This document shows positions 2,347-49,800 of a stretch of DNA of 64,000 nt, piece by piece (within the stretch, counting starts at the first letter, position 1; each line of letters opens with the position of its first letter). Source of the stretch: Lamellibrachia columna (lineage: Eukaryota; Annelida; Polychaeta; Sabellida; Siboglinidae); contig OY759273.1 in assembly GCA_963662155.1 (NCBI GenBank), forward strand, positions 375,501 through 439,500, in the 5' to 3' direction. The position numbers and the translations under genes are program-made. The notes beneath the pieces were generated by a model that saw nothing but the letters and a program-made list of their open reading frames with translations, made no database searches and was not told where the DNA came from.

Positions 2347-2673
2347 TTGTTCATTAATGGATGGAAACTCTTACACACATTTGACCATATTAACATGTAT
2401 AAAAAAAAACACTTACTGCCAGATAAAATCCACATGCTTGTATAATTGAGATAGACATGTAATTAAAAAGGCCAACAAAATAAAAACATTATTAGTCATA
2501 ACTGGGGTGGCTCCTATGATAGCGACAGTATGTCTTAATGGGAGCCACTGATCCCTACTTGTTTTAACATTAAAGATGTATGCACACCAGTATTATTATA
2601 TATGTGCATATATTTTATTTGTGTTGATGCATATCTCTATTGTTTCATTATTTGTTATTTTTTTGGGGTCAAA

Positions 2674-2699
2674 AATAAACTTCTTGTTCTTGTTCTTAT
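2674..2699 (+). promoter_or_regulatory. Poly(A) signal and 3' tail of LINE A
   Basis: AATAAA at 2674-2679 is followed directly by CTTCTTGTTCTTGTTCTT. A short simple-repeat 3' tail is typical of this LINE supergroup and fixes the element's 3' end. Confidence 0.55.
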
Positions 2700-2805
2700 C
2701 ATACTATAAAAAGACATCCACTTTTAAAAACTGAACAGTTACACATATGACAAGAATTTGTTATTCTATATCACTCACATATATACTTATATGTTTGTGT
2801 TCCAG

Positions 2806-2841
2806 CAGTCGAGGGACGCCGGTCGGCAGTGTGAGCAACAT
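2806..2841 (+). CDS. NCX: NCX exon (36 nt), cytosolic loop upstream of CBD1
   Basis: The acceptor TTTGTGTTCCAG and donor GTAAGT both match consensus. Phase is 2 to 2, and the frame reads [11 protein letters not shown] with the last codon split. A second AG three bases downstream (CAGCAG) makes a tandem NAGNAG acceptor, giving 36 or 33 nt. I assign it to NCX because it is on the same strand and its phase joins exactly to the exon at 7708. It has no recognisable domain. Confidence 0.55.
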
Positions 2842-5800
2842 GTAAGTGTTTCTCTCCTTCAGTCTGTTGTGGCACATCAGTATTTGAAGGCTGCTTTTGT
2901 TCTTGGAGTTGGTTAGTTAACTTAGGTGCAATGATATTCATCTTTTGAAAGGGTATGCTTGGAGTTCTCTGACTCTAGTTTGTTCTTGGAGTTGGTTAGT
3001 TAACTTAGGTGCAATGATATTCATCTTTTGAAATGGTATGCTTGGAGTTCTCTGACTCTAGTTTGCATATTTTGTTCTTGGAGTTGGTTAGTTAACTTAG
3101 GTGCAATGATATTCATCTTTTGAAAGGGTATGCTTGGAGTTCTCTGACTCTAGTTTGTTCTTTTGTTCTTGGAGTTGGTTAGTTAACTTAGGTGCAATGA
3201 TATTCATCTTTTGAAAGGGTATGCTTGGAGTTCTCTGACTCTAGTTTGTTCTTTTGTTCTTGGAGTTGGTTAGTTAACTTAGGTGCAATGGTATTCATCT
3301 TTTGAAAGGGTATGCTTGGAGTTCTCTGACTCTAGTTTGTTCTTTTGTTCTTGGAGTTGGTTAGTTAACTTAGGTGCAATGATATTCATCTTTTGAAATG
3401 GTATGCTTGGAGTTCTCTGACTCTAGTTTGCATATTTTGTTCTTGGAGTTGGTTAGTTAACTTAGGTGCAATGATATTCATCTTTTGAAAGGGTATGCTT
3501 GGAGTTCTCTGACTCTAGTTTGTTCTTTTGTTCTTGGAGTTGGTTAGTTAACTTAGGTGCAATGATATTCATCTTTTGAAAGGGTATGCTTGGAGTTCTC
3601 TGACTCTAGTTTGCATATTTTCATAACTTAAATAGATTGTAAAGCACATTATAAACTGCATTTCAAACAGTCAAGATGGGCATGGTGCTTTGAGACAAAA
3701 ACACATTAAATAGTAAGTCAATCAACCAATTTTTCATTATTTTACATATATATTATAGTATTTGATATAAATATTACATTATTTACAGAACTATTAAATT
3801 ACAGAAATAGTACACCATTTTACAGAAATAGTAATATTTTGCATAACCATTACACTATTGAACATAAATAGTACACATTATTTTACATAAGCACTAGGTT
3901 ATTTATCATGTAATATTGTATTATGAACTTCTCTACTTTGGCACAGATGATTTCTCTTTTAAGTCAACAGTCATGCTGTGTTTGATTGAAGGCAGAAGGC
4001 TAGAGCTACCAGTTTCCAAAATGGTTAATGAATATTTGGTCACAAATACATAGGAATTACAAATTTGGCTGGTAGAGTATTATTATTACTAAAATGAATA
4101 TAGTGTCTTATGTCTGGGACCAGCCAGTTCATAGGAACACCCAGTCATTTAACAACATCCATGCAGTCATGGGAACCATTACTAGGTATAGTTAAAAGTG
4201 TAAATTAAAATAAACAAATAGAAATAGACTACTATACAAATAACAAAATATATAATAAATAACTAAAATGCATGTTCATAAAAATGTCCTCATTCAAAGT
4301 TGAAAATAAGCAAGTGTGTCTATATGTCTTATATGTTCTGACAAGGAGTTCCAAAGTATTGGTGCGGACACTGTAGAGTAGATTCTGCTGTTTATCATGT
4401 GATAGTTTGGTTAATTATGAGGAAGGAAATGTTGATTTAATATGTTCATGAATATGTTCAACAAAGAAGGCAGAATGTTTTACTGAGCCAGTTGTGTGAT
4501 TCATCCAGTAATATGAAATACCTGCATCGTTGGCCTGAAAGGTATTAAACACCTGCAGACAACAACAGGAGCACAGTTCCAAGTAATGAACACTCCATGC
4601 TTCAGTGGGTAATGAAGTTACCTAATGTTTGCAGGTTGCTAAGTTACACCAATAGGTTATGGTGAGTCTCTTAGGGCCCCATAAATCATTAAGAAATATG
4701 TGAATTAGCAACTGAGAGTGCCGAGACAACAGGCCTCGCCTGAGTGATTCGAATGAAACCGTGTGAGATCTCTCATTAACTTCATTGAACGACAAATCTT
4801 TCTCCTCCATTTTAATTGAAATTCTGAGAAGCTGTAAAGGAGCGTGAATATGTAAAAACAAAATATTTTTTATTTCTCAGAAGGGCAGGTTACACATGCA
4901 TAGATGAATAATCGATGTACTCTGGATAAGCCAACAGCTTCATAGGTCACTTGCCGTCTGGAGTTTTTGCTTTGGAAGGCAATCTTGTTAAATCTCGTTA
5001 AAAATATGAAAACCAAGTCATGGGCAGTTCCACGATGTCGGACATACATTTCAGACATTTTATCCATGCACTGCATGCTAGGATAGAAAGTACCACAACT
5101 TTTTTCTGCCATATGCTATAGGAACCATCCTATAGTCATTCTAGACATACATTTGAAAAACATGCATGGTGTCGGACGTACTCACACGAACCTGAATTTT
5201 CCACCTGAGTAAGGTGATGTCCAAATCTCTGTGATGTGTGAGGGCATATTGAAAATGTTATGTTATATGCTGATAGGGCAGGACTTCATCTCTTGACTAC
5301 ATCTAATAAAATTTTGTGTCTGTTGTACACTGAAGAAATAGAGAATAGTTTGTCTGCTGTCGGATGTTCATTTTTTGGTGTCGGACGTGTGCGTGTGAAA
5401 TACAACATAACAAGTAGATCAAATACAACATAACAAGTAGATCAAATACAACATAACAAGTAGATCAAATACAACATAACAAGTAGATAAAATGATGCTT
5501 ATATTTTCTAAATAAGGTAGACAAAACACACTTTTGAGCTTAGATTGAATCTTCTATATAAATGTTGACACTTAAAATCCAAAAAATTGATGCTGTCTAC
5601 TGTCCAGACAATGACAGACAAGACCTTAGATAAAATGCACCAGAACAAACTGCCAGGACGGCCAACAACAGTTGGTGCATCAATCAACATTCACCTTGAT
5701 TTCTCCACTTGTCATGTTAAAAAAAATCTGTGACCTCACCGTGGAAATCTACCCCTTCAAACTTCACAACAACCCTGTCACCTATATTGACTTCGATTTC

Positions 5801-8800
5801 CTGATGCACTTCTGTCATGCATCCACAATTTCTATGTAGTAATGGTATCAATTAATGGTATCAATTAATGGTATCATTACTATCATCCAAAGCATCGTCA
5901 CTAATTGTTATTCTGTTAAGTCCCGTGAATCAGATGTATCAGCAACCAGCATGCACTTATTCTACCAATTCCATCTACAATGCCCTTGTCATGTGATGGT
6001 GGTCATGTGATGTTGCTGAACAATTCCAGCTCAGTGTCATGGCATTTTTTTCTTCCCACAGGTGGAGGTTTGAGACTAGGAATCTATGTTTAAGAACTCC
6101 ATCTGAGAATGCCAAAATCATGGTCTTGATATAAATTTGGATACTTAGCCTTCAAATGCATGAAGAGTGTATCCACAAATTCATTAAGCTTGGTGTGCTG
6201 TAATTCACCCGAGACAATGGCATAGCTCTCGGCCTCAGTGATTCCACTATTTGTCCATGCATAGGCAGTATAGAGTGTGGCTTGGGTGTAATTTGACAAT
6301 CCACACATGGCAAAAGAAAGATAGCCACTCCCCACCAGATTACAGGAAATAATGTTGGAGAGCAAAGGCCAGTGATATTATAATGTCTTAGATTATAATG
6401 TCTTAGATTATAATGTCTTAGATTATAATGTCTTAGATTGCTGTTTCAAACCCATTTACACACTGTATTAGGTTATCATTGTCTTCTTCAATGGTCTTTT
6501 ATTGTGCCCCAATTGAATTTGGGTTTAGTCAGTGTAATTAGTTCCAAATGTTTATGCTAATCCAATTATATGGATTAAGAATGGCTGACATTGATAATGT
6601 TTATTAACATCACACAGAAATTACATAAACATTTATATTTTGTTAAAAGGTTGAATCCAATCAGCATGGTGTATGGTGTCGGACATATGGGGTGTTGGAT
6701 GTATGGTGTCAGACGTACATTTTTGACATACGTCCAACACCACAACTTATTGCATATTCAGTAAAAAAAAAAATATTTGTTTGTTCAAACAAATAAAATT
6801 AACATTATATCTCGGTTAGTAAAATCTTGCAACCATCCAACATCAGTGGATGTTAAAAAAATTAATTTTTGTGGTTTCGGACGTACATGGGTAACATACT
6901 CATTACTGATTTAATTAAAAGTTGGTTTAAAATATACCTAAAATATTTATATCATCATTATCATGTAAATTAACTAAGTATATGTTTGGAAATAAACTCC
7001 ATAAAAAGTAATAAGCCTACTTTTAAATTAAAGTAGATATAGTGAAAAAAATGTAATGGAATTTTTCATAAAATATATTGTCATGTCATTAGTTGCATTA
7101 TAAATGATTACATGAGATCTGTTGAAAATGGGTTAATGTGATATCTGAAACTTTGGATTATTACCTTCCAAATGATACCACACTTGCCCCATTTGAACCA
7201 GTTTATAAAACTGACATGATGGTTTACCTGAATGTGGAACTGCCCTCATACAAGCCAGACTGCAATGAGGAGCCAGACCACAACGAGGAGCCAGACCACA
7301 ACGAGGAGCCAGACCACAACGAGGAGCCATACCGCAAGAGGAGCCAGACCGCAATGAGGAGCCAGACCACAATGAGGAGCCAGACCACAATGAGGAGCCA
7401 GACCACAACAAGGAGCCATACCGCAATGAGGAGCCAGACCACAACGAGGAGCCAGACCGCAACGAGGAGCCAGACCACAATGAGGAGCCAGACCACAATG
7501 AGGAGCCAGAACGAAACAGAACAGACATTGTTCTCATGTCTATTTAGATTATAAATTTATTTATCTGTTTATTGCATTGCATTTATGTAAATGATTAATT
7601 AGTTGCTAAGTTTGACATGGCAATTACCTCTCAAGAAGTCAAGAATCTCTTCAGTCCATTCAACGGATTGTATTGTTGAGTCACTGAACACAAAGATTTG
7701 TTGACAGGATGTCCACCATGCGAGGGTCACAGAGTCTCATCAGACAGGACTCTGAGGAACATTTCATCCACTCGAGGTAACACATTGATTATTGTCTCTG
7801 CATTCATCTGCTTGTTAGCTGTTTCTAATCACCTGGTTGTGGTTTCTCTAAACCTTACAGGACTGATGGCGTCCTCCTGCATGTGTTCACCTAACATATT
7901 AACTTATGGATGCTTCAACAGTCTACAGTTGTCAGAAGTTTATGAGGTTTTAAAATCAATTCAGTGAATGATCAACAACTCGCAGAAAACATTGCTGGCT
8001 AGACACTGACTGGTGTTCTCTGACACATAGTGTCATAACACACTGACGTGTCATGTCATGAAACACTGATATGTCACATCATAAGACACTGACATGTAAC
8101 ATAACACACTGTGACATGTCCATCATGACACGCTCTGACATGTCACTCCAGAACACACTGACATGTCACTTCATACTTTATAGCACACTGTAACATGACA
8201 CAGTCTGACATGTCATGTGGTCACATTGACACTAGGATGTCGATCGTCGCAGCCTAACTGTATGAAAACTACCCAGTTCTTGTCCATAATTATCATGATT
8301 TTCTCCACATTTTCCATCAAATGAGCTTCATTTTATGAAGAAAGTTTATTTTTCATGAATCCCAAAATATATATAGCTGTACTACTTAATTTGCTTTTGC
8401 TAACGCTATGTTACCGATTGTGCTTGTTGCTAGGGATGTGCTACTTATTGTGCTTGTAGCTAAGGATGTGCTACTTATTATGCTTGTTGCTACGGATGTG
8501 CTACATATTGTGCTTGTTGGTACGGCTGTGCTACATATTGTGCTTGTTGCTACGGCTGTGCTACGTATTGTGCTTGTTGCTACAGTTGTGCTACTTATTG
8601 TGCTTGTTGCTACAGCTGTGCAATATATTGTACGTGTTGCTTGGGCTGTACTACTTATTGTGCTTGTTGCTAGGGCTGTGCTACTTATTGTGCTTGTTGC
8701 TAGGGCTGTGCTAATTATTGTGCTTGTTGCTAGGGCTGTGCTACTTATTGTACTCGTTGTTAGGGCTGTGCTACTTATTGTGCTTGTTGTTAGGGTTGTG

Positions 8801-15020: not shown

Positions 15021-18000
15021 TTTACCCAGAATGACTTCAGATGAAAAATGTTTGTCTCTGTTTTTGGTGTATATGACTTGAATGTTGCATTCTTTCAGAA
15101 GAAATGTTTGGCAAGTTTACGTTTTCGGCCCCATCCTATTCGATTCTGGAGAGTGCTGGCGTCTTGCAGATAGATGTGATATTCCACAGGAGAAGGACAA
15201 GGTAGGTTCCTGAATAGCTCTGTGAGAGAGATATGTCATATTTTATGAGACAAACCCCTGCAGATAGATGTGATCTTCCACAGGAGAAGGATGAGGTAGG
15301 TTCCTGAATAGCTCTGCGAGAGAGAGATATCATATCTTATGAGACAAACCCATGCATATGTTACTTGAAATACCCTATATGCACATAGGGTATTATTGTG
15401 GTCTAAATAGCACTGCGGAATGCACCAATGTTATCGCCTAGCTGTGCGCAGTACCCACGGAAGCTGGTGCATGTCACAGCACTAATTGAACCACAAAAGT
15501 GTCCTAAAATGCAATATTTGCTAATCATATCTAAACTTTTTTGTGCACCTAAGCTGATGCAGTATGATGGAATGAATGTTTCGGGATATGTAAAACAAGA
15601 TAAGAACGAAACATAAAGTCGTAATACTAAGTACCACATAGATGCAAGATTACCAATATATCATATTGGTTAACATCTTTAATTATTTTCAACAGTTTTC
15701 TTTTGATTCCGTCTAAGACAAACTGGTCAACCCAGAGTGTCCCTCTCGGCACTAAGCAGGTCAGTGACCTGGGTACCCTTTCACTAAGATTTTTATTAAC
15801 TCATTAGCGTGATTTTTGCTCCTTAGGCTTAGCTATGATCAAAACAGAAAAGTGCGTTTCACTAAGAATAAATCATAGAAACTCCTTAAAACACTTCTTA
15901 AACGATGAGGTTAGATCGCTCAAAAGCAAAACATATCCGTCATAAATAGTCACATTTGCCTACTTCACTTTGACTCCACTTTTACGTAGACATCCAGTTT
16001 TTTACAGCCAAATAAGTTTTTAAAGTGTGAGTAATGAATAGTTTGTAAATTATGGCTTTTTTCTACAGCGTCTATTTTACAGTACTAATGTTGAAAAGTC
16101 ATTGTGTGCCCTGTTTTACGGCACCGCGAAGGTCAAAGACAGAAGTTGTTCGCAAAACATTTCATATTCAATTCAACCTCAGTTGTATCTAACCAAAACC
16201 TGTATATTTGAATACTCAATGACACAACTTTACACCTCAGTTGTATCTAACCAAAACCTGCATATTTGAATATTCAATGACACAACTTTACACCTCAGTT
16301 TAACAAGATTTAACAAGATTTGCCATCCAAGCCAAAGGCCCAGATGGCAAGTGGACAAGGAAGCCATTGGCTTATCGAGAGTCCAACAATGTTCATCTAC
16401 TTATAACCCGCCCTCCTGAGATATGTGTCAACCTTGTTTTTAAACATATTCACGCTACTAGCAGTTACAAAATCTGTAGAAAATTTCTTCCTTTCATTTA
16501 TTGTCCTCTGTGAGAACGAGTGCTTCCTGATGTCCAATCTACATTGATCCTTTACTAATTTTACCTCATGTCCTCTAGTTCTGCTATCCTTCTTAAGTGA
16601 GAAAAACATATTTCTATCAATATTTTCATACCCATTCAATATCTTAAAAACTTCAATCTGATCTCCTCTTAACCTTCTTGTCTCTAGAGTTGTTAAACCA
16701 CATTCTTTCAGGCGTTCTTTATAACTAAGGTCTCTCAGTTCTGGAATAATTTTAGTTGCTCTGCTTTGTACGCGTTCAAGCGTATCTATATCCTTCTTAC
16801 GATATGGTCTCCATGCTTGTATACAGTATTCTAAATGAGGTCTAACTATTGCGTTATACAGAGGTATAATTAACTTTTTTTCTTGTATGTTATGTTTCTT
16901 CTAATCAATCCAAGAATTTGATTACCATTTGAAGCTGCAATACCACACTGCTCTGAAACTTTCATATCAGCGCTTATTGTAACTCCTAAGTCCTTTTCTT
17001 TTACAGTAGTACCCAGAACAGTATCTCCCATTTTATAGTTTACATCCAAGTTCCCATGTCCTGTATGTAGGCATTTACATTTCCCAAAATTGAACAACAT
17101 CTGCCATTTCTCAGACCATTTCACTAATCTGTCTAGATCGTTTTGTAAATGTTGTTTATCACCATCAGTATTAACCTTTCTAAAAAGTTTTGTGTCATCC
17201 GCAAATTTCAGTATGTTACTTGTTATACTGTCGTCCAAGTCATTGATATATATTAAGAATAATATAGGTCCTAATACTGATCCTTGAGGTACCCCACTCA
17301 AAACCGATTTCCAATTTGAAACTTCTCCATCTACTACAACTCGTTGTCTTCTGTCAGTCAGCCATTGTTCTATCCAGTCAGTTATGCTGTCCCCGATACC
17401 ATGGGCTTTTAATTTAAGTAGTAATCTTTGATGTGGCACTTTGTCAAAAGCTTTCTGAAAATCTAAGTAGATAATATCTACTGGCTATCCCACGTCTATC
17501 CACTTAGTGATTTCTTCCAAAAAACATAACATATTTGTTAAGCATGACCTCTCTTTAAGGAATCCATGTTGAGTTGTATCTAACCATAACCTCAAAAACT
17601 CATCAAAACACGTGTCACAGAAATAGTGTCCTCTGTGACACCTCGTCTTATAAACTTATACTTTTTATCTTCACCTAGTGAGCAAATAATTCAAATATGT
17701 TTGAAAAGTGTTCGATGCAACGTATTATCAGCCACTTTTGGACAACTTTTTCTATTTATTTTGCCCAATTGTGCACACTGTGGAGCCTATGATGTAAAAT
17801 TCAATCATTAGCTTATGATTGATTTAATGAGCATCTTAGTGAAACGCATTTTGAAAACTCTCTTAAAAATCTATGATGGATTCTGTTTTATGATGGGTTC
17901 TCCTAATGAGCTCATTATTTTAGTGAAACATTCCCCTGGTCACTGTTCATGTTGTGCTATTGTCCAGGTTGTGTAATCATTATTTTAGTGAAACATTCCC

Positions 18001-30000: not shown

Positions 30001-31579
30001 TTGGCAGCCGTGTGAACCCGTGAGGGGTTACTCTAGAATGTTTGACACGCGAGGCTGGCTTGTAACACATAATACATGTTTGTCAACACAACTTGGCAGC
30101 CGTGTGAACCCGTGAGGGGTTACTCTAGAATGTTTGACACGCGAGGCTGGCTTGTAACACATAATACATGTTTGTCAACACAACTTGGCAGCCGTGTGAA
30201 CCCGTGAGGGGTTACTCTAGAATGTTTGACACGCGAGGCTGGCTTGTAACACATAATACATGTTTGTCAACACAACTTGGCAGCCGGGTGAACCCGTCAA
30301 GGTTGTTCGTCCACTGCCAGCCAGATCCTGTGCCAGGAAGGTGGTGCTTGGATGACAGTTATTTAGTTCCATTTCCAGAATTGTAAATTTGCGAACAAAC
30401 CACTGATTTGTTTCTGGTGTTGACCCAAGCAAAACCACTGATTTGTTTCTGGTGTTGACCCAAGTAAAACCACCAAGTAAGTAACTTGTGAGCTAGCAGC
30501 GGTTTTACGATGAACATAAAAAACTTAATTTTTTATTTCTTGAACAAGATTGCACTTCAAAGTGATAAGCTCCAAGTTGCAAGTGGACAAGGATGCCATT
30601 GGCTTATCGAGAGTCCAACAAATTCTTTTTGATGTGTAACCCGCCCTGATCAGAAATCTCATATTCACACTGCTAGCATTAAAACAATCAGTAGATAATG
30701 TATTCTATTAATCAATCATCCTCTGTGAGAACAAGTACTTTCTCATATCGGATTGTTCTTTTACTAATGCTCCTTGGGCAATTTTTTTCACCCCACTTTG
30801 CCTGTGTCTTTCGGAAAAGACACTAAGAGCCGTTGGTCCCTTCTATCTGGTGCCAGGGGAAGTAAAAGATCCCACAGGGAAATGGAAAAAACCTCTTGTG
30901 GACTCAGTGCACCTCATAGAGCTGGTGGTCTTGTTCTCTGAACTCACTACTACCTCCCAGTGTAGCTGTCAACTGTAGAAGGAGTATCTCATAAAGCATC
31001 AAGCTACTTTGTGGTCTATTGTTATGTGCCCCCTTTGTACCCTCTTGTTATGTACCCACTTTGTGCCCTCTTGTTTTGTGCCCCCTTTGTGGCGTCTTGT
31101 TTTGTGCTATCTAGTTCTGTGCCCCCTTTATGCCCTCTAGTTATGTGCCCACTTTGTGACCTCTTGTTCTGTGCCCACTTTGTGTTTGAAGCATATATTT
31201 CTGTCAATATTTTCGTAACCATTCAATGTATAAAAAGCTTCTATTTGTTCTCCTCTTGAACTCTTGACCTCCTGGTCTTTAGAATTGAGTTCATTCCTCG
31301 TCTGTAGAACGGAGACTCAGTAAAGAACGGCAATGCACAGACACTGCCCAGAGACCCGGAGGACACCAGCATGGGGGACACGGGGACAGGGGACATGCTT
31401 CGGGGGACAGTCTCAGTTGAGTTCGAGACAAAGGAAGGGTCGGCCAGGTTTGACAAGGACCTCAAGTTTTGCAAAGGACTATTGGCAAGTGGCGCTAACA
31501 ACTTTCAGCGTGAAATAAGGTCAAATTACAAAGCTTTGTCATTTGGAAAGGAGAACCAATGAAAGCTGTTGAACATCAA

Positions 31580-31897: not shown

Positions 31898-34800
31898 TTG
31901 TATGTTGGCTGGCAAGGGCAACCGAAAGGGCAGCAAAACTGTCCCCACTGTTGCAGTGAGACAGTAACGCAAAAGTGCTATCACACACACATGTGTCTGT
32001 GTGCATGTGTGTGCATGTGTGCATGTGCATCCGTGCATGCGTGTGTGTATGTCAGCTGTTGTTGATAAACAATAGGCACTAGTTTAATTCACACAGTGCA
32101 TAGGCAACAATTCACATTCTCAATTCTGCTTTACATAACAACCTCCAATAAACACAAAGAAATAATCCCAGGAATTTCATTCATGGTTGATAGCTTATAC
32201 ATAAATGACAGATAGCAACCTGACAATCAACAAGTTGGTTAACAAGTTATCAGCAACTAAGGTGCCTTCTCAAAACATCCATTATAACACACATGAAACC
32301 AATGCCATTTAGCCCCAGACATCGATCTGTGAACAACTATTCGCCAGGTAGAACTTCTACTGCCTCTATCCATGCACCCGTATCATATTTCTACTGCCTC
32401 TATCCATGCACCTGTATCATATTTCTACTGCCTCTATCCATGCACCTGTATCATATTTCTACTGCCTCTATCCATGCACCTGTATCATATTTCTACTGCC
32501 TCTATCCATGCACCTGTATCATATTTCTACTGCCTCTATCCATGCACCTGTATCATATTTCTACTGCCTCTATCCATGCACCTGTATCATATTTCTACTG
32601 CCTCTATCCATGCACCTGTATCATATTTCTACTGCCTCTATCCATGCACCTGTATCATATTTCTACTGCCTCTATCCATGCACCTGTATCATATTTCTAC
32701 TGCCTCTATCCATGCACCTGTATCATATTTCTCACCATTTGACAACAAAATCTTACTGTTTCCTTATTCTTAAATAACGCCTCCAATAATGAATTGCAAA
32801 CTTTTTGGACGATTTAGTAAAATAACCAGTTACGCAAGCACTTGTTATAATATTTTTTTTAATGTACTTAAAAAGCTAATAACTCATAAATTTTGTTGAT
32901 GTTGTATTAGAATTTCCCCCAAATTAGACATACACTGTAATACTTTGATGAGACAGTCAGGTATGTAATACTTTGATGAGACAGTCAGGTATGTAATACT
33001 TTGATGAGACAGTCAGGTATGTAATACTTTGATGAGACAGTCAGGTATGTAATACTTTGATGAGACAGTCAGGTATGTAATACTTTGATGAGACAGTCAG
33101 GTATGTAATACTTTGATGAGACAGTCAGGTATGTAATACTTTGATGAGACAGTTAGGTATGTAATACTTTGATGAGACAGTCAGGTATGTAATACTTTGA
33201 TGAGACAGTCAGGTATGTAATACTTTGATGAGACAGTCAGGTATGCTAATTAAACAACCTGTATTATCCCCTTATGTATTAGTGTAAGAAATACAACGTA
33301 CCCGTATCTCATGTGTGTAAATAAACCATAGATAAAATGTAAATAAACCACTATATTTAATTACCATGCTTAGTTACAACTTCATCGTTTCATTACAGTT
33401 ATGATGGCATAAATATGTCTCACATATGTAGACCTATAAAAGTTGTGCTCTGATGTGTTCACTTGTTATAACTGCAGACTGAATACTTGATGAATGTTTA
33501 TGTAACGTGTTATTTAACCCATTAGAGTCCGCAAAGGCCGCGGCCGGCCGTTCTGTGCAGTCCTGGAACAGCCGCCACCGGCCACATACAGAACCCTCTA
33601 TTAAAAAAAATCCTGGCGATTAACTACTGAACTAAACAGTACCAAATTTTTACACACCCTAGTGGATACATTTTGCAACAACATTAACTCGTTACGTGCA
33701 TGTGTTGCCCTTTTGGAAATCTTGATTTTCATCGGTTTTGTTCACGCCATCTCGAAAATTTTTATTTCTATATGATAAAATATGGTGTAACCTGAAAAAT
33801 AACCACAAGAATTTCATAATTTTTTCAGTGTTGCAAAGCTAAAATATATAGCTTCTTCGCTGGGTTGCAAGGGTTATAGCAGGGGTCACTGTCAAATGTC
33901 AGTCGCAAGGTAGAATAACTTTCAAAGTTTTAACAAACTTACTATTTTGTCTTTGCAAATTGTGAACAAATGTCAACATTTTATTAATATATCCTATTTC
34001 TATGTGTACAGGCAGGTGGAGAAATTACTACTCTTCAAAATAAACACAACTTGTAATTGTCAATATTGAATAGTTTTTTCTACATATTTCTAAACACAAG
34101 GAAGTAAAATCGCTCAAAATTTGCCAGAAATCCTGGGAACAGGGGAATATGTTTTTATAAAATGCTGGGGCCTAATGGGTTAATTACACTAGTGTTTACG
34201 GTACCGTTGCCTACAACTAAAATATGTTTGTTTCCTAAAAAAAATAACAAATATTTGTCTGATTATACATTACGTAGACATTAAATAGATCTTGTTCTGT
34301 TGCCCATGTCTAGGAGTTCAAGAACACAGAGAGTATCAAGACCATCTCAATACCCATCATCAATGACAACCAGTACGAGGCTGATGTTGACTTCTATGTG
34401 ACTCTGAAGAATGCCCGCGGATTAGATGCTTCAGTCGGTGACCCCAACATTGCTAGAGTGACCATCATTGATGACGACGGTAAGATCATGGCAACATTTT
34501 AAACATTCTTGTGTAAATTCACAGCGATGTATTTAATAACCAACAGACGAGGCTTTCTAAACAGATGAGCCCTCCTCTGTGCGCATTCTTGTCTTTTTTC
34601 ATAGTCTCCAGTTCCTGAGGATATAGATGCCATAGAAGTTAATTATTATTGTGAATGTCGACCAGCAACAGAGAACACCAAACCTACCCTACTCGTTAGT
34701 GGAAGGATGTGTAATAACAACAGATATATAAATAAATGTTTATAGATATTGATTACCAGTTAAGGTTGACTTTTGCAGTCTTGCATGAATGTTCAATACA

Positions 34801-37800
34801 CCTATGGTTAGGGTTAGGAAAATATTTATGGAAGTATTTTGTTTCACGTAAGGAAGATAGAAGAACTAGAGGACACCAAGCAGCGTTAATGAGAGAACAG
34901 TGTACCCTTGATATAAGACGGTACTCATTCTCACAGAGGACGATAAAGGAATGGAACAAATTATCTACAGATTGTAAATGTTAGCCGAGTGAATATGTTT
35001 AGAAACAAAGTTGTCAAATATTTCAGAGGGGCGGGTTACACATAGATGAAAATTTTTTTACTCTCAATGAGCTAACAGCTTCCTTGTCGACTTCCTATCT
35101 GGAGATTTAGATTTGGATAGCAATCTTGTTAAATCTTGTTAAACCAAACAGAGCCGGGAGAGTTCCAGTTTGACCAGTCGTCCTACTACGCTGACCCCCG
35201 GGCAGGGAGTGTCGCATTGACAGTGATCAGAGAGAAGGGATGTGATGGCAATGTGTCTGTCGAGTACAGCACAATGTGAGTATTCATCCATATGTTGACT
35301 AGATTCTGTTGTATGCGATAGACAGGCACAGTGTATTGTGTGCTATGACATTGATGCAGTTAAGGCTCGGCAAAGGGAGTACCTGGAATAGATTCTGTTG
35401 TATGTGACAGACAGACACAGTGTATTGTGCGCTATGTCATTGATGCAGTGATGGCTCCGCAAAGGGAGTACCTGGAATAGATTCTGTTGTATGTGATAGA
35501 CAGACACAGTGTATTGTGCGCTATGACATTGATGCAGTGATGGCTCGGCAAAGGGATTACCTGGAATAGATTCTGTTGTATGTGATAGACAGACACAGTG
35601 TATTGTGCGCTATGTCATTGATGCAGTGATGGCTCGGCAAAGGGAGTACCTGGAATAGATTCTGTTGTATGCGATAGACAGACACAGTGTATTGTGCGCT
35701 ATGTCATTGATGCAGTGATGGCTCGGCAAAGGGAGTACCTGGAATAGATTCTGTTGTATGCGATAGACAGACACAGTGTATTGTGTGCTATGACATTGAT
35801 GCAGTTAAGGCTCGGCAAAGGGAGTACCTGGAATAGATTCTGTTGTATGCGATAGACAGACACAGTGTAGTGTGCGCTATGTCATTGATGCAGTGATGGC
35901 TCGGCAAAGGGAGTACCTGGAATAGATTATGTTGTATGTGATAGACAGACACAGTGTATTGTGCGCTATGACATTGATGCAGTTAAGGCTCGGCAAAGGG
36001 AGTACCTGGACTAGATTCTGTTGTATGTGACAGACAGACACAGTGTATTGTGCGCTATGACATTGATGCAGTTAAGGCTCGGCAAAGGGAGTACCTGGAA
36101 TAGATTCTGTTGTATGTGACAGACAGACACAGTGTATTGTGCGCTATGACATTGATGCAGTTAAGGCTCGGCAAAGGGAGTACCTGGACTAGATTCTGTT
36201 GTATGTGACAGACAGACACAGTGTATTGTGCGCTATGACATTGATGCAGTGATGGCTCGGCAAAGGGATTACCTGGAATAGATTCTGTTGTATGTGATAG
36301 ACAGACACAGTGTATTGTGCGCTATGTCATTGATGCAGTGATGGCTCGGCAAAGGGAGTACCTGGAATAGATTCTGTTGTATGCGATAGACAGACACAGT
36401 GTATTGTGCGCTATGTCATTGATGCAGTGATGGCTCGGCAAAGGGAGTACCTGGAATAGATTCTGTTGTATGCGATAGACAGACACAGTGTATTGTGTGC
36501 TATGACATTGATGCAGTTAAGGCTCGGCAAAGGGAGTACCTGGAATAGATTCTGTTGTATGCGATAGACAGACACAGTGTATTGTGCGCTATGTCATTGA
36601 TGCAGTGATGGCTCGGCAAAGGGAGTACCTGGAATAGATTATGTTGTATGTGATAGACAGACACAGTGTATTGTGCGCTATGTCATTGATGCAGTGATGG
36701 CTCGGCAAAGGGAGTACCTGGAATAGATTCTGTTGTATGTGATAGACAGACACAGTGTATTGTGCGCTATGACATTGATGCAGTTAAGGCTCGGCAAAGG
36801 GAGGACCTGGACTAGATTCTGTTGTATGTGACAGACAGACACAGTGTGTTGTGTGCCATGTCATTGATGCAGTGATGGCTCGGCAAAGGGAGGACCTGGA
36901 CTAGATTCTGTTGTATGTGATAGACAGACACAGTGTATTGTGTGCCATGTCATTGATGCAGTGATGGCTCGGCAAACGGAGGACCTGGACTAGATTCTGG
37001 TGTATGTGATAGACAGACACAGTGTGTTGTGTGCAGGGTTGTTTGATTTAAATCATTTGATTTAAATCATTGATTTAAATCATGATTTAAATCATTGATT
37101 TAAATCATGATTTAAATCACTCAAAAAAAAAAAATGTATCGCTGATTTATATGAATTTAGCACAAACAATTGTTTACAAGCATTGAGATCAACACAGTCT
37201 TGTATGTTTTTTAATACAAAACCACAAAGTGTGCACACTTGTGTAGCTGTATTGACACCAGATAGCCTGACAGTCAAATATTTTATGACATTGTGTATGT
37301 CTGAGCTATTCCCTTTTTGAATGCAGTGAAGCCACACAAAGTTGTCTTCCAGAGGAAGTATCTTTTCAAGTCAGAAGCCCTGAGTTAAAGTCCACTTAGA
37401 GCTTGTGCTAGTTGTTCCCAATTCAGTATGTTGACTCAAGTGAGACAGTCTGGGCTACCATTGTTTAATACTGTACCAGTTTGCAGTCTGGTTAGAGACC
37501 CTTAAAGTACTACACAGGGCCCTGGACAGGTTCTAATCCACCCTCTCAGCAAACAATAATTACCACTGCTACAGCCACAGACACACAGCTTGCTTTCCTT
37601 TCCAAGACAGATTATGCAACTACAGGAGGTGTGGCCATGTGGACATTGTCTAATGTCTTTACGTAAGCAAAAATCATGTACCCTCTGTTAAGACAAGTAC
37701 CTAGATCGATTTGAATAGAACACATTTGAAAGGGTTTATAAATACATCAACATCTATATAAAATTTATTAATGTCTATATACCAGATTTAAAAAAAATCA

Positions 37801-40800
37801 AATCAATAAAAAAAAATTTTTTTAATCTGATTTCAATAAAAAAATCTTATTTAAATAAAAAATCTTATTTAAAAAAAATCATTATTTTTTTCAACCCTGA
37901 TTGTGTGCTATGTCATTGGTACAGTAATGGCTTGGCAAAGGGAAGACCTGAACTATATTCTGTTGTATGTGATAGACAGACACAGTGTATCGTGTGCTAT
38001 GTCATTGGTACAGTGATGGCTCAGCAAAGGGAGGACCTGGACTAGATTCTGGTGTTGACTATGAGGAGGTGCATGGAGTGCTACAATTCCAACACTGTGA
38101 GGCCAAGAAACAAGTGATACTGAAGATGAACAAGGACTCTCTTGTAAGCATCTCAACTGTACTTTTTCCTGCCCTTTTTTGTTATAGTTATTCAGCTTTT
38201 TTATGCAAATTGTTCAATATGTTTATTTTTAATCCAGTTTATTCAGTTAGATTGGCCCACTATTTTATACAGTTTAGTCCCTGTGATTGTCCAGTTTAGT
38301 TTAAGCACCAGACAAGATAATATGCTCATATTGTTGTCACAAGACATGAGACAAAGCTCATATTGTTGTCACAAGACATAAGACAAGGTGCTTATATTGT
38401 TGTCACAAGACATGAAACAGAGCTCATATTGTTGTCACAAGACATGAGACAAAGCTCATATTGTTGTCACAAGACATAAGACAAGGTGCTCATAGTGTTG
38501 TCACAAGACATGAGACAGAGCTCATATTGTTGTCACCAGACATAAGACAAGGTGCTCATATTGTTGTCACAACACATGAGACAGAGCTCATATTGGTGTC
38601 ACAAGACATGATACAAGATTATTGTATTGTTGTCACAATATATGAGACAAGGTGCTCATATTGTTGTCACAAGACATGTGACATGGAAAGCAGAGCTCCC
38701 AACAGCTACTATTTAACAAGACAAGATCAAACAAGATTACTATCCAAAGCAACAAATAATGGACGTCCAACAATTGTCCATGTTTGTAGTCTGCCCTTGT
38801 CAGGTATCTGTCAGTTTTGTTGGTGGTTGCGTAGTCGCATTGATTCAGTTTACAGTGCATGTGCTAAGGCTATATGAAGTAATGACACCATGAAGATTGA
38901 TGTGATATCTTGAATCAGGCCTACAGAGAGTAGACATGTGTAATGTTGGTTGGACAACTTGGCCAGTGTTTTCTTGACTGGACCATCCCATCATTCAAGG
39001 ATGCTGGTTCTTGCAGGGAAGCAAGAATCTGTTGGTGACGTTACGGAACCCAAGCATCGGGGCAAAGATAGGGAAGAACAGTGCAGTGATGGTCACCATT
39101 ACGTCAGGTACTGGCAGCTGAAAACACAATTACTCACAACAATCCTACTAAGAGCGTTGGTCATACAAAGGTAGCCCCAGATCCTTTCTCAATAAACAAC
39201 ATTTACAGTGTTAGCATAAAATGATGTGAATACATTTCCTTAAATTTAGTTAAAGTGAATGTACATTTGATAGTGAACCATTCTGATGATTTTCAAGTTT
39301 AATAAAGCATTTGAGTTGGATTATTCCAAAGTGTTTGTTGTAAATGTCCACTATTTATTATAGATTACTAATAGACTACAATGGTGAACATTCACTGCTA
39401 AGTAGTTGTACCAATATTTTATTATATATAATATTCAAGAATGTGTTCTGTTCCAATGAACGAACAATAACAAACCACGTGCAAAAATTATTACGGTTAC
39501 TGTAATTACACAGCTACGCCCTTTGTGAACGTACAATCATAAATATGGCGCAGCAAAACCCGCTGCATACTTACAACATAAAAATAGACGGAAACCCCCA
39601 AACTGGAATGTTACATACAATGCTCTCAGTTATCATAAGCTGAAGGAAACTTGCCTCTGTCGTCATTCACTACAATGACAATTTCAATGAAAACGATTTA
39701 TTTCAATGCGAACACAAGTGTTAACAAGCAGACGCATGTGTCAATGGTGAATGTTACCATGTCGAACCATCACATTAAAAACCTGAAATATCTGGACATT
39801 TTTGCATACAAACACATTGATGTTTACGTGAACGTGAAGCTAAGATTTCAGCCTTTCTAATGATAGTCTTTAGATGGCACCATTTTAACATGCACTTAAA
39901 CTAGTAAGGAAATAATCTGCTGCATCACCAGTCCCCCTAGTGGGCTGTCGCATTCAAGTGTCTGAGACAGATAATGATATGCATTGATAACAAATCCTCT
40001 GGAAAAATAAATGATCCTAAGTGATGTCATTATATCCTATTCCAATGAATGCCTTCAGACCCCCTGGCAGAACGATTGGCCAACGTGATGGGGGATGAAG
40101 AGGAGATTACATGGAGTGGTCAATTCAAGAGGTCAGTGCAAGTGATGTGGTTGTTGTATAGTTTGGTGTGTCCTGCATTGGTAAATCTTCAACAACAATA
40201 CTTCACTATTACTACACAACAACAATGCTTCATTATTACTACACAACAATTATACTGCACTAATACTACACAACAATGATACTGCACTAATACTACACAA
40301 CAATGATACTGCACTAATACTACACAACAGTACTTCACTAATACTACACAGCAACAATACTTCACTAATACTACACAGCAACAATACTTCACTAATTCTA
40401 CACAACAACAATACTTCACTAACACTACACAACAACAATACTTCACTAACACTACACAACAACAATACTTCACTAATTCTACACAACAACAATACTTCAC
40501 TAACACTACACAACAACAATACTTCACTAACACTACACAACAACAATACTAACACTACACAACAACAATACTTCACTAACACTACACAACAGTACTTCAC
40601 TAACACTACACAACAACAATACTTCACTAACACTACACAACAACAACAATCGACTTCCGGAATCTTGGTGCAGCAGCGACTTGAAATTGGTGTAGAGAAT
40701 TTACAGAAAAAAGTGCAATATCGAATAGATTAAGTATTACTATTGCATACATATTACACATTAACGTATTATAGACATATATTAGATAACAGTTTTTGTT

Positions 40801-43800: not shown

Positions 43801-46800
43801 AAAACAACAGGGGAAACATAATTTCAGACGGGTTTCAAATGGCAGCTCAGTTTTTACCACAGAAGATATCGGCTCACTTCCAGTTCCATGTACTAAATTT
43901 GAGGGCAATAAATCAGAACATTTAGGGCAGTTATTTGTAACTCCTGAAATTATAGCAAACAAAACTAAGAAGATGAAAGATAATAAATCACCTAGAGTTG
44001 ATGGGATACCACCAAAACTGCTTAAGGAAATTGTTGAGCAATTTAATACGCCACTTCCAAATTTTTTAACTTGTCACTAGAAGAAGGAATAGTTCCTTCA
44101 TAATGGAAAGAAGCAAACATTACGCTGCTATTTAAGAAGGGATCGAGGAACAAGCCAGAAAATTACAGACCACTGAATTTAACATCAGTTGTATGTAAAT
44201 TACTTGAAACATTAATTAGAGACCACATGGTGGAATTCCTTGTAAAACATAATTTAATAAATACATCTCAACATGGGTTCCTAAATCAAGGTCGTGTCTA
44301 ACCAATCAATGTTTTTTTGAAGAAATTACAAAGTGGGTAGATGACGGGTCACCAGTGGATGTTGTCTACTTAGATTTTCAGAAAGCTTTCGATAAAGTGC
44401 CACACCAAAGATTGATACTTAAACTAAAAGCCCATGGTATAGGTAATGATGTAATCAACTGGATAGAAAAGTGGCTTACACACAGAAGACAGAGAGTAAT
44501 AGTAGATGGTGAGATTTCAAACTGGAAATCGGTTTTAAGTGGGGTACCACAGGGATCAGTATTAGGCCCTATACTGTTTTTAATATATATAAATGATTTA
44601 GAAGATGACATATCTAGCAAAGTACTCAAATTTACAGATGACACAAAAGTATTCAGAAAGGTTACAAATAATACAGATAAACAAAGTTTACAGGATGATC
44701 TAGATAAATTAGTTAAATGGTCAGAAAAATGGCATATGTTATTCAATTTTGGTGTAAATGTATACACATAGGACATGGAAACATGGATGAAGAATATACA
44801 ATGGGGGATGCTGTACTAGGTAGAACCACACAAAAAAAGGACTTAGGACTAACATTTAGTGCTGACATGAAAGTTTCAGAGCAATGTGGGATTGCCGCTT
44901 CGAAAGGAAATCAAATTATAGGGCTAATTAGGAGAAGTATCATGTATAAGGAGAAACAGCTAATTGTACCCCTGTACAAAGCAATAGTTAGACCACATTT
45001 GGAATATTGTATTCAAGCATGGAGGCCGTATCATAAAAAGGACATAGATAAGCTAGAAAGAATACAACAAAGAGCAACTAAAATGATTCCAGAATTAAGA
45101 GACCTTAGTTACGAAAGTCGCTTATTACAATGTGGTTTGACAACACTAGAGACCAGGAGACTAAGAGGAGACCAAATAGAAGTGTTTAAAATAGTGAACG
45201 GTTATGAGGATGTTGATAGGAATATGTTCTTCAAACTTAAAGAAGGCAGTAGAACCAGAGGTACTCTTTCTCACAGAGGGTGATAAATGAATGGAACAAA
45301 CTGCCAAATGATTGTGTTAATGCTAGTAGTGTGAATATGTTTAAAAATAGAAATGAAATATATTTGATAAGGGCGGGCTACACATGGATGAGAAAATTGT
45401 TCAACTCTCGATAAGCCAATGGCTTCCTTGTCCACTTGCCATCTGGAACTTGTTGTATGGGATGGCAATCTTGTTAAAAACAACAATACTGCACTAATAG
45501 TACACAATAACAATACTTCATTATTACTACACAATAACAATACTGTACTAATACTACACAACAACAATATTTCATTATTACTGCACAATAACAATACTGT
45601 ACTAATACTACACAGCAATAATACTTCACTAATACTACAAAACAAGAATACTTCATTATTACTACACATCAACAATACTGCACTAATACTACACAACAAC
45701 AATATTTCATTATTATTACACAATAACAATACTTCACTAATACTACACAGCAACAATACTTCACTAAATCTACACAACAACAATACTTCACTAATACTAC
45801 ACAGCAACAATATTTCACTAATACTACACAACAACAATACTGCACTAATACTACACAACAACAATACTGTATTGATACTACACAACAACAATACTTCACT
45901 AATATTACACAACAACAATACTTCACTAATACTACACAGCAGCAATACTTCACTAATACTGCACAACAACAACACTGCGCTAATACTACAACAACAATAA
46001 TACAGCACTATTACTACACAACAACAATACTTCACTAGTACTACACAACAAGACCAGATGTCCTCAGATTGAGCCAATTATTTAATGTTAAAAAAGTTTT
46101 TTATTAAATAATGTATGAGTTGTGCAGCTAGCATGCATTGTATTTATATTATTATGTTTACATGTCATGCTTGATATTTGTCTGTTTTGAAAGTTTGTAT
46201 AAGAGTTTCTTATACCTCAAAAGGGTTCAGTTGGAAACTATGAAAACATTTTCATTTTAGTAGTATTGTAGCAATGTTAGTGGCACCTTTGATATAGTCC
46301 CTAAGTGTTTCCCTCTCCTCCAGTGCAATGGTGTTGGAGCCAGAGCAAGACGAAGATGGCAACGACCTCCCTCTGTCCGGGCTCGACTATGTGCTTCACT
46401 TCATCTCCTTCTTCTGGAAAGTCATATTTGCTTTCATTCCTCCCAGGTAGGTTGTCATTACTCCCAGGTAGGTTGTCATCCCTCCAAGGTAAGTTGTCAT
46501 TCCTTTCAGGTAGGCTGTCATTCCTCTCAGGTAGGTTGTCATCCCTCCCAGGTATGTTCTCATTCCCTCTGGTAGGTTTTCGTCCCTCTCAGGTAGACGG
46601 TCATTCCTCTCATGTAGGCTGTCATCCATCCCAGATAGGTTGCCATTGTTACCAGGTAGGTTGTCATCCCTCCCAGATAGGCTGTCATTCATCCCAGGTA
46701 TGTTCTCTTTCCCTCTGGTAGGTTGTCATTCCTCCCAGGTATGTTATCATTTCCCCCAAGTAGGTTGTCCTTCCCCAGGTAGTGTGTCATCCCTCCCAGG

Positions 46801-49800
46801 TGTAGGTTGTCATTCCTCCCATTTATGTTGTTATTTCCACCAGGTATGTTGTCATTCCACGGGTAGTTTGTCATTCTTCCCAGGTAGGTTGTCATTATCC
46901 ACCAGGTAGGTTGTCATTGCCCCAGGTAGGTTGTCATCCCTCCCAGGTAGATTGTCATTTCTCCCAGGTAGGTTGTCACACGTGCACGCGCGCACACACA
47001 CGCATTTATAGTGTTTATTCGGAGTAGTTTTGGCAAATGCAGTAATGATTAATGGTGACTTTCAATACACTGAACAATGACTGCTTGAAATCATATTGCA
47101 TTACATTTTGTAGTATATATCCATTTCAACAACTCCGAAAAATTCATTAGAATTCAATTAATTAATAATTCCAAATAATACTCTGTTCTACTGGTCCACC
47201 TCGATTGTGCATATCCCATGATTATCGGCAAACTTCAGTTTTGTGATATGACTGATGACATGGGTTTACATTCAGTCGGTGATTTCTATGTGAAAATCCC
47301 AATGTTAGTCCTTCTATACACTTTGTCATCCACAATTTTCAGTATGTTGCTTGTTACATTATCGTCAAAGACATTGATATATATTATGAATAATAAAGGT
47401 CCTAATACTGATCCTTGTGGTACCCCACTCAAAACTGATTTCCAGTTTGAAACCTCCCCGTCAACTACAACACGCTTTCTTCTGTCAGTCAGCCAATTTT
47501 CTATTCAGTCAATTATGCCGTTCCCGATAGTATGGGCTTTTAATATAAGTATTAATCTTTGGTGTGGCACTTTGTTGAAAGTTTTCTGAAAGTCTAAGTA
47601 GATAATATCTACAGGTGATCCCTCGTCTATCCACGTAGTGATTTCTTCCAAAATTACATATTTGTTAAGCATGACCTCACTTTTAGGAATCCATGTTGAG
47701 ATGGATTTAATAATCTTTGCCTAACAAGGAAGTCCACCATATGGTCTTTAATTAACCTTTTTAATAATTTACAAATGATTTATGTTAAACTCACTGGTCT
47801 GTAATTATCTGACTTATTTCTCAAACACTTTAAATAATGGTATGATGTTTGCTTCTTTCCATTCAAAAGGAACCACTCCCTCTTTTAATCAAAAGTTAAA
47901 CTCTTTTGCAAGTGGTATACTAATTTGCTTTACCGTTTCCATTACTAGTTTTGGCGGAATTCCATCCACTCCAGGTGATTTGTTATCCTTCATTGCCTTT
48001 ATTTTCTTAGCTACCATTTCTAGAGTTACAATTAACTGCCCTAAATAGTCCGATTTAGCCTCCTGAAATTTAGCATCTTGGACTGGTAATGAACTAATAT
48101 CTTCTCTGATAAACACTGAACTGAAGTATCCATTTAGATATTCCAACATTGAAAAACCTTGTGATATTATATTTCCAGCACTGCCTTCTAGTTGTCCAGC
48201 TTTGTCTTGTATGTTTTGTTTACTCCTGACATAACAAGTCTTGCTGTTATCTTTATGTTACATGCTCAGTTTTGCTCATAGCTTCTATTATATTGTCTAA
48301 TTTCAGTTGTAGCTGCATTAGGTGCCTCTTTGTAATTTGTGTAGTCTTCATCCTTTCTGGTACGCCTATAAACCCTCCACATAGTTTGTAGTCTTCATCC
48401 TTTCTGGTACACCTACAAACCCTCCACATAGTTTGTAGTCTTCATCCTTTCTGGTACACCTACAAACCCTCGACATAGTTTGTAGTCTTCATCCTTTCTG
48501 GTACACCTACAAACCCTCCACATAGTTTGTAGTCTTCATCCTTTCTGGTACACCTACAAACCCTCCACATAGTTTGTAGTCTTCATCCTTTCTTGTACAC
48601 CTACAAACCCTCCACATAGTTTGTAGTCTTCATCCTTTCTGGTACACCTACAAACCCTCGACATAGTTTGTAGTCTTCATCCTTTCTGGTACACCTACAA
48701 ACCCTCGACATAGTTTGTAGTCTTCATCCTTTCTGGTACACCTACAAACCCTCCACATAGTTTGTAGTCTTCATCCTTTCTGGTACACCTACAAACCCTC
48801 CACATAGTTTGTAGTCTTCATCCTTTCTGGTACACCTACAAACCCTCCACATAGTTTGTAGTCTTCATCCTTTCTGGTACACCTACAAACCCTCCACATA
48901 GTTTGTAGTCTTCATCCTTTCTGGTACACCTACAAACCCTCCACATAGTTTGTAGTCTTCATCCTTTCTGGTACACCTACAAACCCTCCACATAGTTTGT
49001 AGTCTTCATCCTTTCTGGTACACCTACAAACCCTCCACATAGTTTGTAGTCTTCATCCTTTCTGGTACACCTACAAACCCTCCACATAGTTTGTAGTCTT
49101 CATCCTTTCTGGTACACCTACAAACCCTCCACATAGTTTGTAGTCTTCATCCTTTCTGGTACACCTACAAACCCTCCACTTAGTTTGTAGTCTTCATCCT
49201 TTCTGGTACACCTACAAACCCTCCACATAGTTTGTAGTCTTCATCCTTTCTGGTACACCTACAAACCCTCCACATAGTTTGTAGTCTTCATCCTTTCTGG
49301 TACACCTACAAACCCTCCACATAGTTTGTAGTCTTCATCCTTTCTGGTACACCTACAAACCCTCGACATAGTTTGTAGTCTTCATCCTTTCTGGTACACC
49401 TACAAACCCTCGACATAGTTTGTAGTCTTCATCCTTTCTGGTACACCTACAAACCCTCGACATAGTTTGTAGTCTTCATCCTTTCTGGTACACCTACAAA
49501 CCCTCCACATAGTTTGTAGTCTTCATCCTTTCTGGTACACCTACAAACCCTCCACATAGTTTGTAGTCTTCATCCTTTCTGGTACACCTACAAACCCTCC
49601 ACATAGTTTGTAGTCTTCATCCTTTCTGGTACACCTACAAACCCTCCACATAGTTTGTAGTCTTCATCCTTTCTGGTACACCTACAAACCCTCCACATAG
49701 TTTGTAGTCTTCATCCTTTCTGGTACACCTACAAACCCTCCACATAGTTTGTAGTCTTCATCCTTTCTGGTACACCTACAAACCCTCCACATAGTTTGTA

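What the first reader, a model, noticed from the sequence alone, without database searches (positions are those of the whole stretch)
35300..38143. Minisatellite built from a splice acceptor and the first 38 nt of an NCX exon, about 20 copies upstream of the real exon
Seen: the 89-bp unit equals 51 nt of intron ending in CAG plus the first 38 nt of the CBD2 exon at 38014. The true exon is the final member of the array. Every copy offers a decoy 3' splice site, and a GTATGT follows shortly after, so pseudo-exons are possible. Reading on from a decoy reaches a TAG in the next unit, so mis-splicing would truncate the protein. Inference: the cell must ignore about 20 near-identical acceptors, or use them to tune the amount of functional exchanger, with copy number as a variable.
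Basis: partly seen in the sequence, partly recalled or inferred. Interest (0 to 1): 0.9.

Follow-up and report, generated by a model that had tools for sequence, protein, structure and literature searches.

The report
Tandem copies of an exon's edge
In a tubeworm's sodium/calcium exchanger gene, a stretch of DNA straddling the start of one exon has been copied about twenty times into the neighbouring intron; decoy exon edges of this kind were already known from lancelets and humans, and here they look like a side-effect of repeat-rich DNA rather than a control device.

Summary
An 89-bp unit (51 nt of intron ending in CAG plus the first 38 nt of the exon at 38014) is repeated from 35300 up to the exon. 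An 866-bp hAT-like element (37034-37899) interrupts it; 20 decoy acceptors precede the true one. The gene is an SLC8/NCX-type exchanger of an annelid: its alpha-1 exon is 98% identical to a Lamellibrachia satsuma protein. All 20 decoys would truncate the protein, 7 at once and 13 after 28-40 residues. The kind is known. [quoted passage not shown] human CBS carries two. In this gene 41% of intron bases lie in arrays, and junctions are not enriched in them: 3 of 23, against 8.8 +/- 3.2 for shifted positions. Two more junctions of this gene and two clear ones in other genes carry the same structure. Best reading: neutral minisatellite expansion that swelled a short intron, decoys ignored in splicing. 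Copy-number tuning is untested and unsupported. New are the phylum and the copy number.

The parts
35152..35275 (+). upstream exon, first part of the second Calx-beta domain (CBD2); donor AAT|GTGAGT
35276..35299 (+). the only non-repeat part of the intron, 24 nt including the donor
35300..37033 (+). 89-bp tandem array, 19 full units with 19 decoy acceptors plus a partial unit
37034..37899 (+). 866-bp hAT-like insertion; 8-bp inverted ends, target duplication GTTGTGTG/ATTGTGTG
37900..38013 (+). remaining units right of the insertion: decoy acceptor at 37925 and the intron part of the last unit, ending in the true acceptor GGTACAG
38014..38143 (+). true exon (130 nt), second part of CBD2; its first 38 nt are the exonic part of the repeat unit; donor GTAAGC
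39017..39107 (+). next exon, completing CBD2
15166..15353 (+). second boundary duplication in the same gene: 94 bp x 2 across the donor of exon 15099-15201 (86 of 94 identical)
46432..46978 (+). third boundary array in the same gene: 21 bp x 26 across the donor of exon 46324-46446 (TTCCTCCCAG|GTAGG); 16 CAGGTA including the true one

Best explanation
This is a boundary-spanning minisatellite ('mirage') in the intron inside the CBD2 region of an NCX (SLC8-type) gene of a vestimentiferan tubeworm close to Lamellibrachia. A short intron (with one copy of the unit it would be 84 nt: 24 + 60) and the first nucleotides of its downstream exon were duplicated in tandem, plausibly by slippage between two copies of TAGATTCTG, one at the left edge of the array and one inside the exon (inferred). 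Unequal exchange and block duplication then multiplied the unit to about 21, and a hAT-like element landed in the array. The last copy stays the real exon edge because only it is joined to the rest of the exon. Splicing most likely ignores the decoys, because only the last acceptor lies upstream of a full-length exon with a working donor (exon definition; inferred). The array has no special job and persists because it is tolerated.
For: Unit equals intron end plus exon start. TAGATTCTG stands at 35300 and at 38043 inside the exon. Units 3-7 and 11-15 match at lag 8 with 1,0,0,0,1 differences, against a mean of 3.8 at lag 1: a recent block duplication. The unit beside the exon is the most divergent (8 differences from the consensus, against 0-6 in the 19 left-hand units), as reported for amphioxus globin arrays. 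Minority cells are 28 of 722 in the exon-derived part and 31 of 969 in the intron-derived part: no sign of coding constraint. Arrays of period 10 or more cover 17,491 of 42,798 intron bases but 52 of 1,484 exon bases, and junctions are not enriched in arrays. The same structure recurs at two other junctions of this gene and in other genes. Published cases appear to splice normally or prefer the distal copy.
Against: No RNA data were available. True and decoy acceptors are nearly alike from -20 to +3 (1-5 of 23 differences) and equally pyrimidine-poor (0.53 against 0.47-0.53), so nothing local explains why decoys would be ignored. Four single-strand folds gave no unusual structure (z-scores 0.05, -0.43, 0.87, 0.98). 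Neutrality rests on one genome and 19 copies, too few to exclude weak constraint.
Confidence: 0.83

Rival explanations
1. Regulated decoy array: a fraction of transcripts splices to decoy acceptors or includes 40-nt pseudo-exons, is truncated or degraded, and so the array sets the amount of working exchanger.
For: All 20 decoys keep an AG acceptor and all give a premature stop; a 40-nt pseudo-exon joined to the true exon also stops in all 19 copies tested. A 31-bp repeat with 16-21 copies in human CBS, placed at exon 13-intron 13, is listed with raised homocysteine and, by the title of a cited paper, with reduced CBS activity. In C. elegans one minisatellite is over-represented near alternative splicing regions (PMC4039745, abstract).
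Against: No sign of constraint on the copies; boundary arrays are not enriched at junctions; amphioxus relatives appear to splice normally.
Confidence: 0.07
2. Intron birth: the duplication itself created this intron, as proposed for amphioxus globins and reported for a potato gene.
For: The array plus insertion make up 99% of the intron. An NCX-like paralogue on C6 reads through this position without an intron and lacks about six residues here. Duplications crossing an intron-exon boundary can make introns.
Against: A one-copy version is already a plausible 84-nt intron. A metagenomic relative (P0003) ends exactly at STM, as this exon's frame does at its donor (ATG-TGA), which suggests the same donor and an older intron; its DNA was not seen.
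Confidence: 0.07
3. Assembly artefact: the copy number, or the array itself, is a misassembly.
For: Long arrays are error-prone; only one assembly was seen.
Against: Copies carry distinct variants in an ordered pattern, the insertion has its own target duplication, and arrays occur in the other stretches read.
Confidence: 0.03

Closest known systems
Amphioxus 'mirages' (Adh3; globins BflGb6 and BflGb9; PMC3087553: abstract passage, section 16 whole and other passages; the Adh3 paper itself, PMC117041, is not held)
   Same: Minisatellite-like tandem duplication of the intron 3' end plus exon 5' part (BflGb6), or of a donor side (BflGb9); the authentic exon edge at one end of the array; edge copies escape homogenisation; decoy AG/GT signals.
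   Different: About 21 copies here against 6 and 3 in the two BflGb6 haplotypes; an annelid; interrupted by a transposon; three such structures in one gene.
Lancelet PGBD5 and troponin C boundary repeats (PMC3902484, one passage)
   Same: Tandem repeats that include splice sites; described as not disturbing mRNA splicing.
   Different: Other genes and phylum; PGBD5 copies are described as 60- and 108-bp imperfect repeats, the latter a triplication.
Human CBS 844ins68 and 31-bp VNTR (PMC2630376 and PMC1395315, passages)
   Same: [quoted passage not shown] the VNTR is placed at exon 13-intron 13 with 16-21 copies.
   Different: Two copies only in the first, a donor-side repeat in the second; human alleles with reported phenotype associations.
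Potato RdRp intron gain by tandem duplication (PMC4974935, abstract and outline)
   Same: A duplication crossing an intron-exon boundary, with formerly exonic sequence now in the intron.
   Different: A tandem duplication after which a new intron arose; no array.
Earthworm metallothionein exon 4 duplications (PMC12783039, passages)
   Same: Annelid; exon duplications absent from the final transcript, minisatellite-like repeats in the gene.
   Different: Exon copies, one of them reversed, rather than a boundary array.

Membership tests
Boundary-spanning minisatellite ('mirage') | Repeat unit comprises intron and exon sequence across a splice junction | tested here: met
   51 + 38 nt, base-by-base alignment
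Boundary-spanning minisatellite ('mirage') | Tandem, head to tail, ending in the authentic exon edge | tested here: met
   contiguous once the insertion is discounted
Boundary-spanning minisatellite ('mirage') | Concerted turnover inside the array, edge copies diverged | tested here: met
   lag-8 block identity; most divergent unit beside the exon
Boundary-spanning minisatellite ('mirage') | Normal splicing despite decoys | not testable with these tools
   no RNA data
Boundary-spanning minisatellite ('mirage') | Length instability between haplotypes or individuals | not testable with these tools
   one assembly; only an internal block duplication was seen
SLC8/NCX Na+/Ca2+ exchanger gene | Calx-beta regulatory domains plus alpha-1 and alpha-2 exchanger repeats | tested here: met
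   Calx-beta; NCX1 chains best in PDB; alpha-2 exons at 58072 and 58673; alpha-1 exon upstream
SLC8/NCX Na+/Ca2+ exchanger gene | Being the single canonical NCX of the animal | tested here: inconclusive
   an NCX-like paralogue lies on C6; most invertebrates are said to have one canonical NCX and some extra divergent copies (PMC2408596, passages)
hAT-like DNA transposon (the insertion) | 8-bp target-site duplication and short CAG-type inverted ends | tested here: met
   7 of 8 bp match, 8-bp inverted ends; the hAT pattern itself is recalled
hAT-like DNA transposon (the insertion) | Dispersed copies in the genome | not tested
   no copy search was made

The most novel reading that the evidence does not exclude
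In vestimentiferan tubeworms boundary-spanning minisatellites are a pervasive way for short introns to grow, and in this NCX gene the 20 decoys are a heritable, length-variable sink: a share of pre-mRNA splices to them and is lost, so array length sets exchanger dose between individuals.
Probability: 0.06. Interest if true: 0.8.

Novelty: new member of a known kind. Interest (0 to 1): 0.34.

Why it matters
It takes a structure described mainly from lancelets into a distant phylum, and suggests that decoy exon edges are an ordinary by-product of minisatellite-rich DNA. With about 20 near-identical acceptors upstream of one true exon it is also a natural test of what lets the spliceosome choose the right copy, and of how introns grow.

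Tried and rejected
Considered and rejected: chance similarity (at least 15 of 38 mismatches elsewhere in the window on either strand); the source being an amphioxus (no GFP-family match, itself weak because no control rang either; decided by 98% identity to a Lamellibrachia satsuma protein); RNA structure masking the decoys (four folds); a known RNA family (none at gathering scores); enrichment of arrays at junctions (3 of 23 observed; 3% of 9,143 shifts give 3 or fewer, so if anything the opposite). The first run of that test had three exon ends off by 1-3 nt; the rerun with mended ends gave the same result. TRF itself shows 2 of 23; the third, at 38014, was added by hand because TRF stops at the insertion.

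Led nowhere: relatives of the CBD2 exon in the protein database (only the window's own); genome-wide prevalence from kinase loci (PF00069 did not complete); phylum marker families PF14830 and PF16915 (not completed); NCX family PF01699 (did not complete; exons were found by local tblastn instead). In the PDB search 1 of 16 matched sequences was not an exchanger but a designed PPR protein. Against a uniform picture: one 10-kb stretch (L019) has only 153 bases in arrays, and 25 of 31 Calx-beta coding matches elsewhere have no array within 40 nt. Paper searches that named annelids, tubeworms or the exchanger beside minisatellites listed no boundary minisatellite in a tubeworm or in an NCX gene; I saw titles and abstract beginnings (15 of 396 papers listed, 8 of 8), and passages of PMC9921365 and PMC2408596, and only open-licence papers are held.

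Full report
What is there. The array of 89-bp units begins at 35300, 24 nt after the end of the exon 35152-35275, and runs to the exon 38014-38143. Aligned on its acceptor, each unit is 51 nt of intron ending in CAG plus the first 38 nt of the exon. The exonic parts of the 20 decoys differ from the true exon at 1-6 of 38 positions, whereas elsewhere in the window nothing comes closer than 17 mismatches on the + strand or 15 on the - strand. Nineteen decoy acceptors lie left of an 866-bp insertion at 37034-37899 and one lies right of it. The insertion has 8-bp inverted ends and an 8-bp target duplication with one mismatch; joining its flanks restores a normal unit, so the array was once unbroken. 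The array and insertion together make up 99% of the 2,738-nt intron; with a single unit the intron would be 84 nt long. A search of the whole genome with the exon and its acceptor matched only this locus (8 places listed, a lower bound).

What gene. Splicing 34315-34479, 35152-35275, 38014-38143 and 39017-39106 in phase gives a 169-aa protein with a Calx-beta match of 92 bits. Its best solved relatives are NCX1 chains; 15 of 16 PDB matches are exchangers and one, a designed PPR protein, is not. That exon is 98% identical over 181 aa to a protein of Lamellibrachia satsuma and 92% to one of Ridgeia piscesae, so the window comes from a vestimentiferan tubeworm (Annelida, Siboglinidae; for the lineage). 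A second NCX-like gene lies on C6; which of the two is the canonical exchanger was not settled. PMC2408596 (passages) notes that most invertebrates have one canonical NCX and that some carry extra divergent copies.

What the decoys would do. From the upstream exon, 7 of 20 decoys give an immediate TAA, 12 of 20 a stop 40 residues on at the start of the next unit, and 1 of 20 a stop 28 residues on inside the insertion. A possible donor 40 nt into each copy is GTATGT in 13 of 19 and GTATGC in 6 of 19 left-hand copies; a 40-nt pseudo-exon joined to the true exon stops in 19 of 19. Decoy and true acceptors differ at 1-5 of 23 positions, are equally pyrimidine-poor, and four single-strand folds show nothing unusual. 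Local sequence therefore does not tell them apart. The context does: only the true acceptor is followed by a 130-nt open exon with a GTAAGC donor. That exon definition makes the choice is inference.

How it arose. TAGATTCTG stands at the left edge of the array and inside the exon at 38043, which would permit slippage duplication of the stretch between. Units 3-7 repeat as units 11-15 with 1, 0, 0, 0 and 1 differences, a recent block duplication. Minority letters are about as frequent in exon-derived cells (28 of 722) as in intron-derived cells (31 of 969), and 7 of 19 left-hand copies carry TTAAGG in place of TGATGG. Nothing suggests selection on the copies.

How special it is. Arrays of period 10 or more cover 24,616 of 64,000 bases of the window, and in this gene 17,491 of 42,798 intron bases and 52 of 1,484 exon bases. 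Circular shifts predict 8.8 +/- 3.2 of 23 junctions inside arrays; TRF shows 2, and the acceptor at 38014, beyond the insertion where TRF stops, makes 3; 3% of shifts give 3 or fewer. Junctions are not enriched; if anything they are spared. The two others are the donor at 15201 (94 bp x 2) and the donor at 46446 (21 bp x 26). In seven further 10-kb stretches chosen for Calx-beta matches, 6 of 31 coding matches have an array within 40 nt. I read four of these six: one clear donor array (L015, 72 nt of exon plus 19 of intron per 91-bp unit), one clear acceptor array (L020, 17 bp), and two weaker cases. Array density is uneven: 153 to 6,214 of 10,000 bases in 12 stretches.

Prior art. The 2010 amphioxus globin paper (PMC3087553; section 16 whole and other passages; [quoted passage not shown] its authors say that Adh3 data and their globin RT-PCR suggest no interference with regular splicing. 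PMC3902484 (one passage) adds PGBD5 and troponin C. [quoted passage not shown] A potato gene gained an intron through a duplication crossing an intron-exon boundary (PMC4974935, abstract and outline). In an earthworm, duplicated metallothionein exons are absent from the final transcript (PMC12783039, passages).

Intron birth was considered. The NCX-like paralogue on C6 has no intron here and lacks about six residues, PGLDSG, but a metagenomic relative ends at the same three residues as this exon's frame does at its donor (P0003), and an ordinary 84-nt ancestor suffices.

Verdict. New, as far as the searches named in Tried and rejected go, are the phylum, the number of copies and the recurrence within one gene. 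Functional tuning is possible but has little in its favour beyond the existence of the decoys and the human CBS association.

Noticed in passing
window 46432-46978: The 21-bp donor array repeats a pyrimidine tract plus CAG|GTAGG (16 CAGGTA including the true donor), so many units resemble a recursive-splicing (ratchet) site; about 26 copies in a row. The ratchet consensus is recalled.
   Followed up: partly
window 15166-15353: 94-bp duplication across the donor of exon 15099-15201; reading past the first donor meets TAG at once.
   Followed up: partly
L020:957-1400: Donor of a Calx-beta exon followed by a 27-bp array (about 58 copies) in which units carry a pyrimidine tract and CAGTAAGT.
   Followed up: partly
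L015, reverse complement 1867-2473: Donor-side boundary array of 91 bp x 5.9 in another Calx-beta gene, 72 nt of exon per unit.
   Followed up: partly
window 40190-40646 and 45479-46051: The same 27-bp array unit lies on both sides of a stretch with reverse-transcriptase-like reading frames (about 42.5-45.3 kb), as if a LINE-type element had landed in the array. The LINE reading is by eye, not by a family search.
   Followed up: no
window 31352-31484: This exon appears to end in a GC donor (TTG|GCAAGT), judged from frame and homology.
   Followed up: no
window 38014-38060: The exon start encodes five to six extra residues (around PGLDSG) absent from the NCX1 chains and from the C6 paralogue, lying within the part shared with the repeat unit.
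   Followed up: partly
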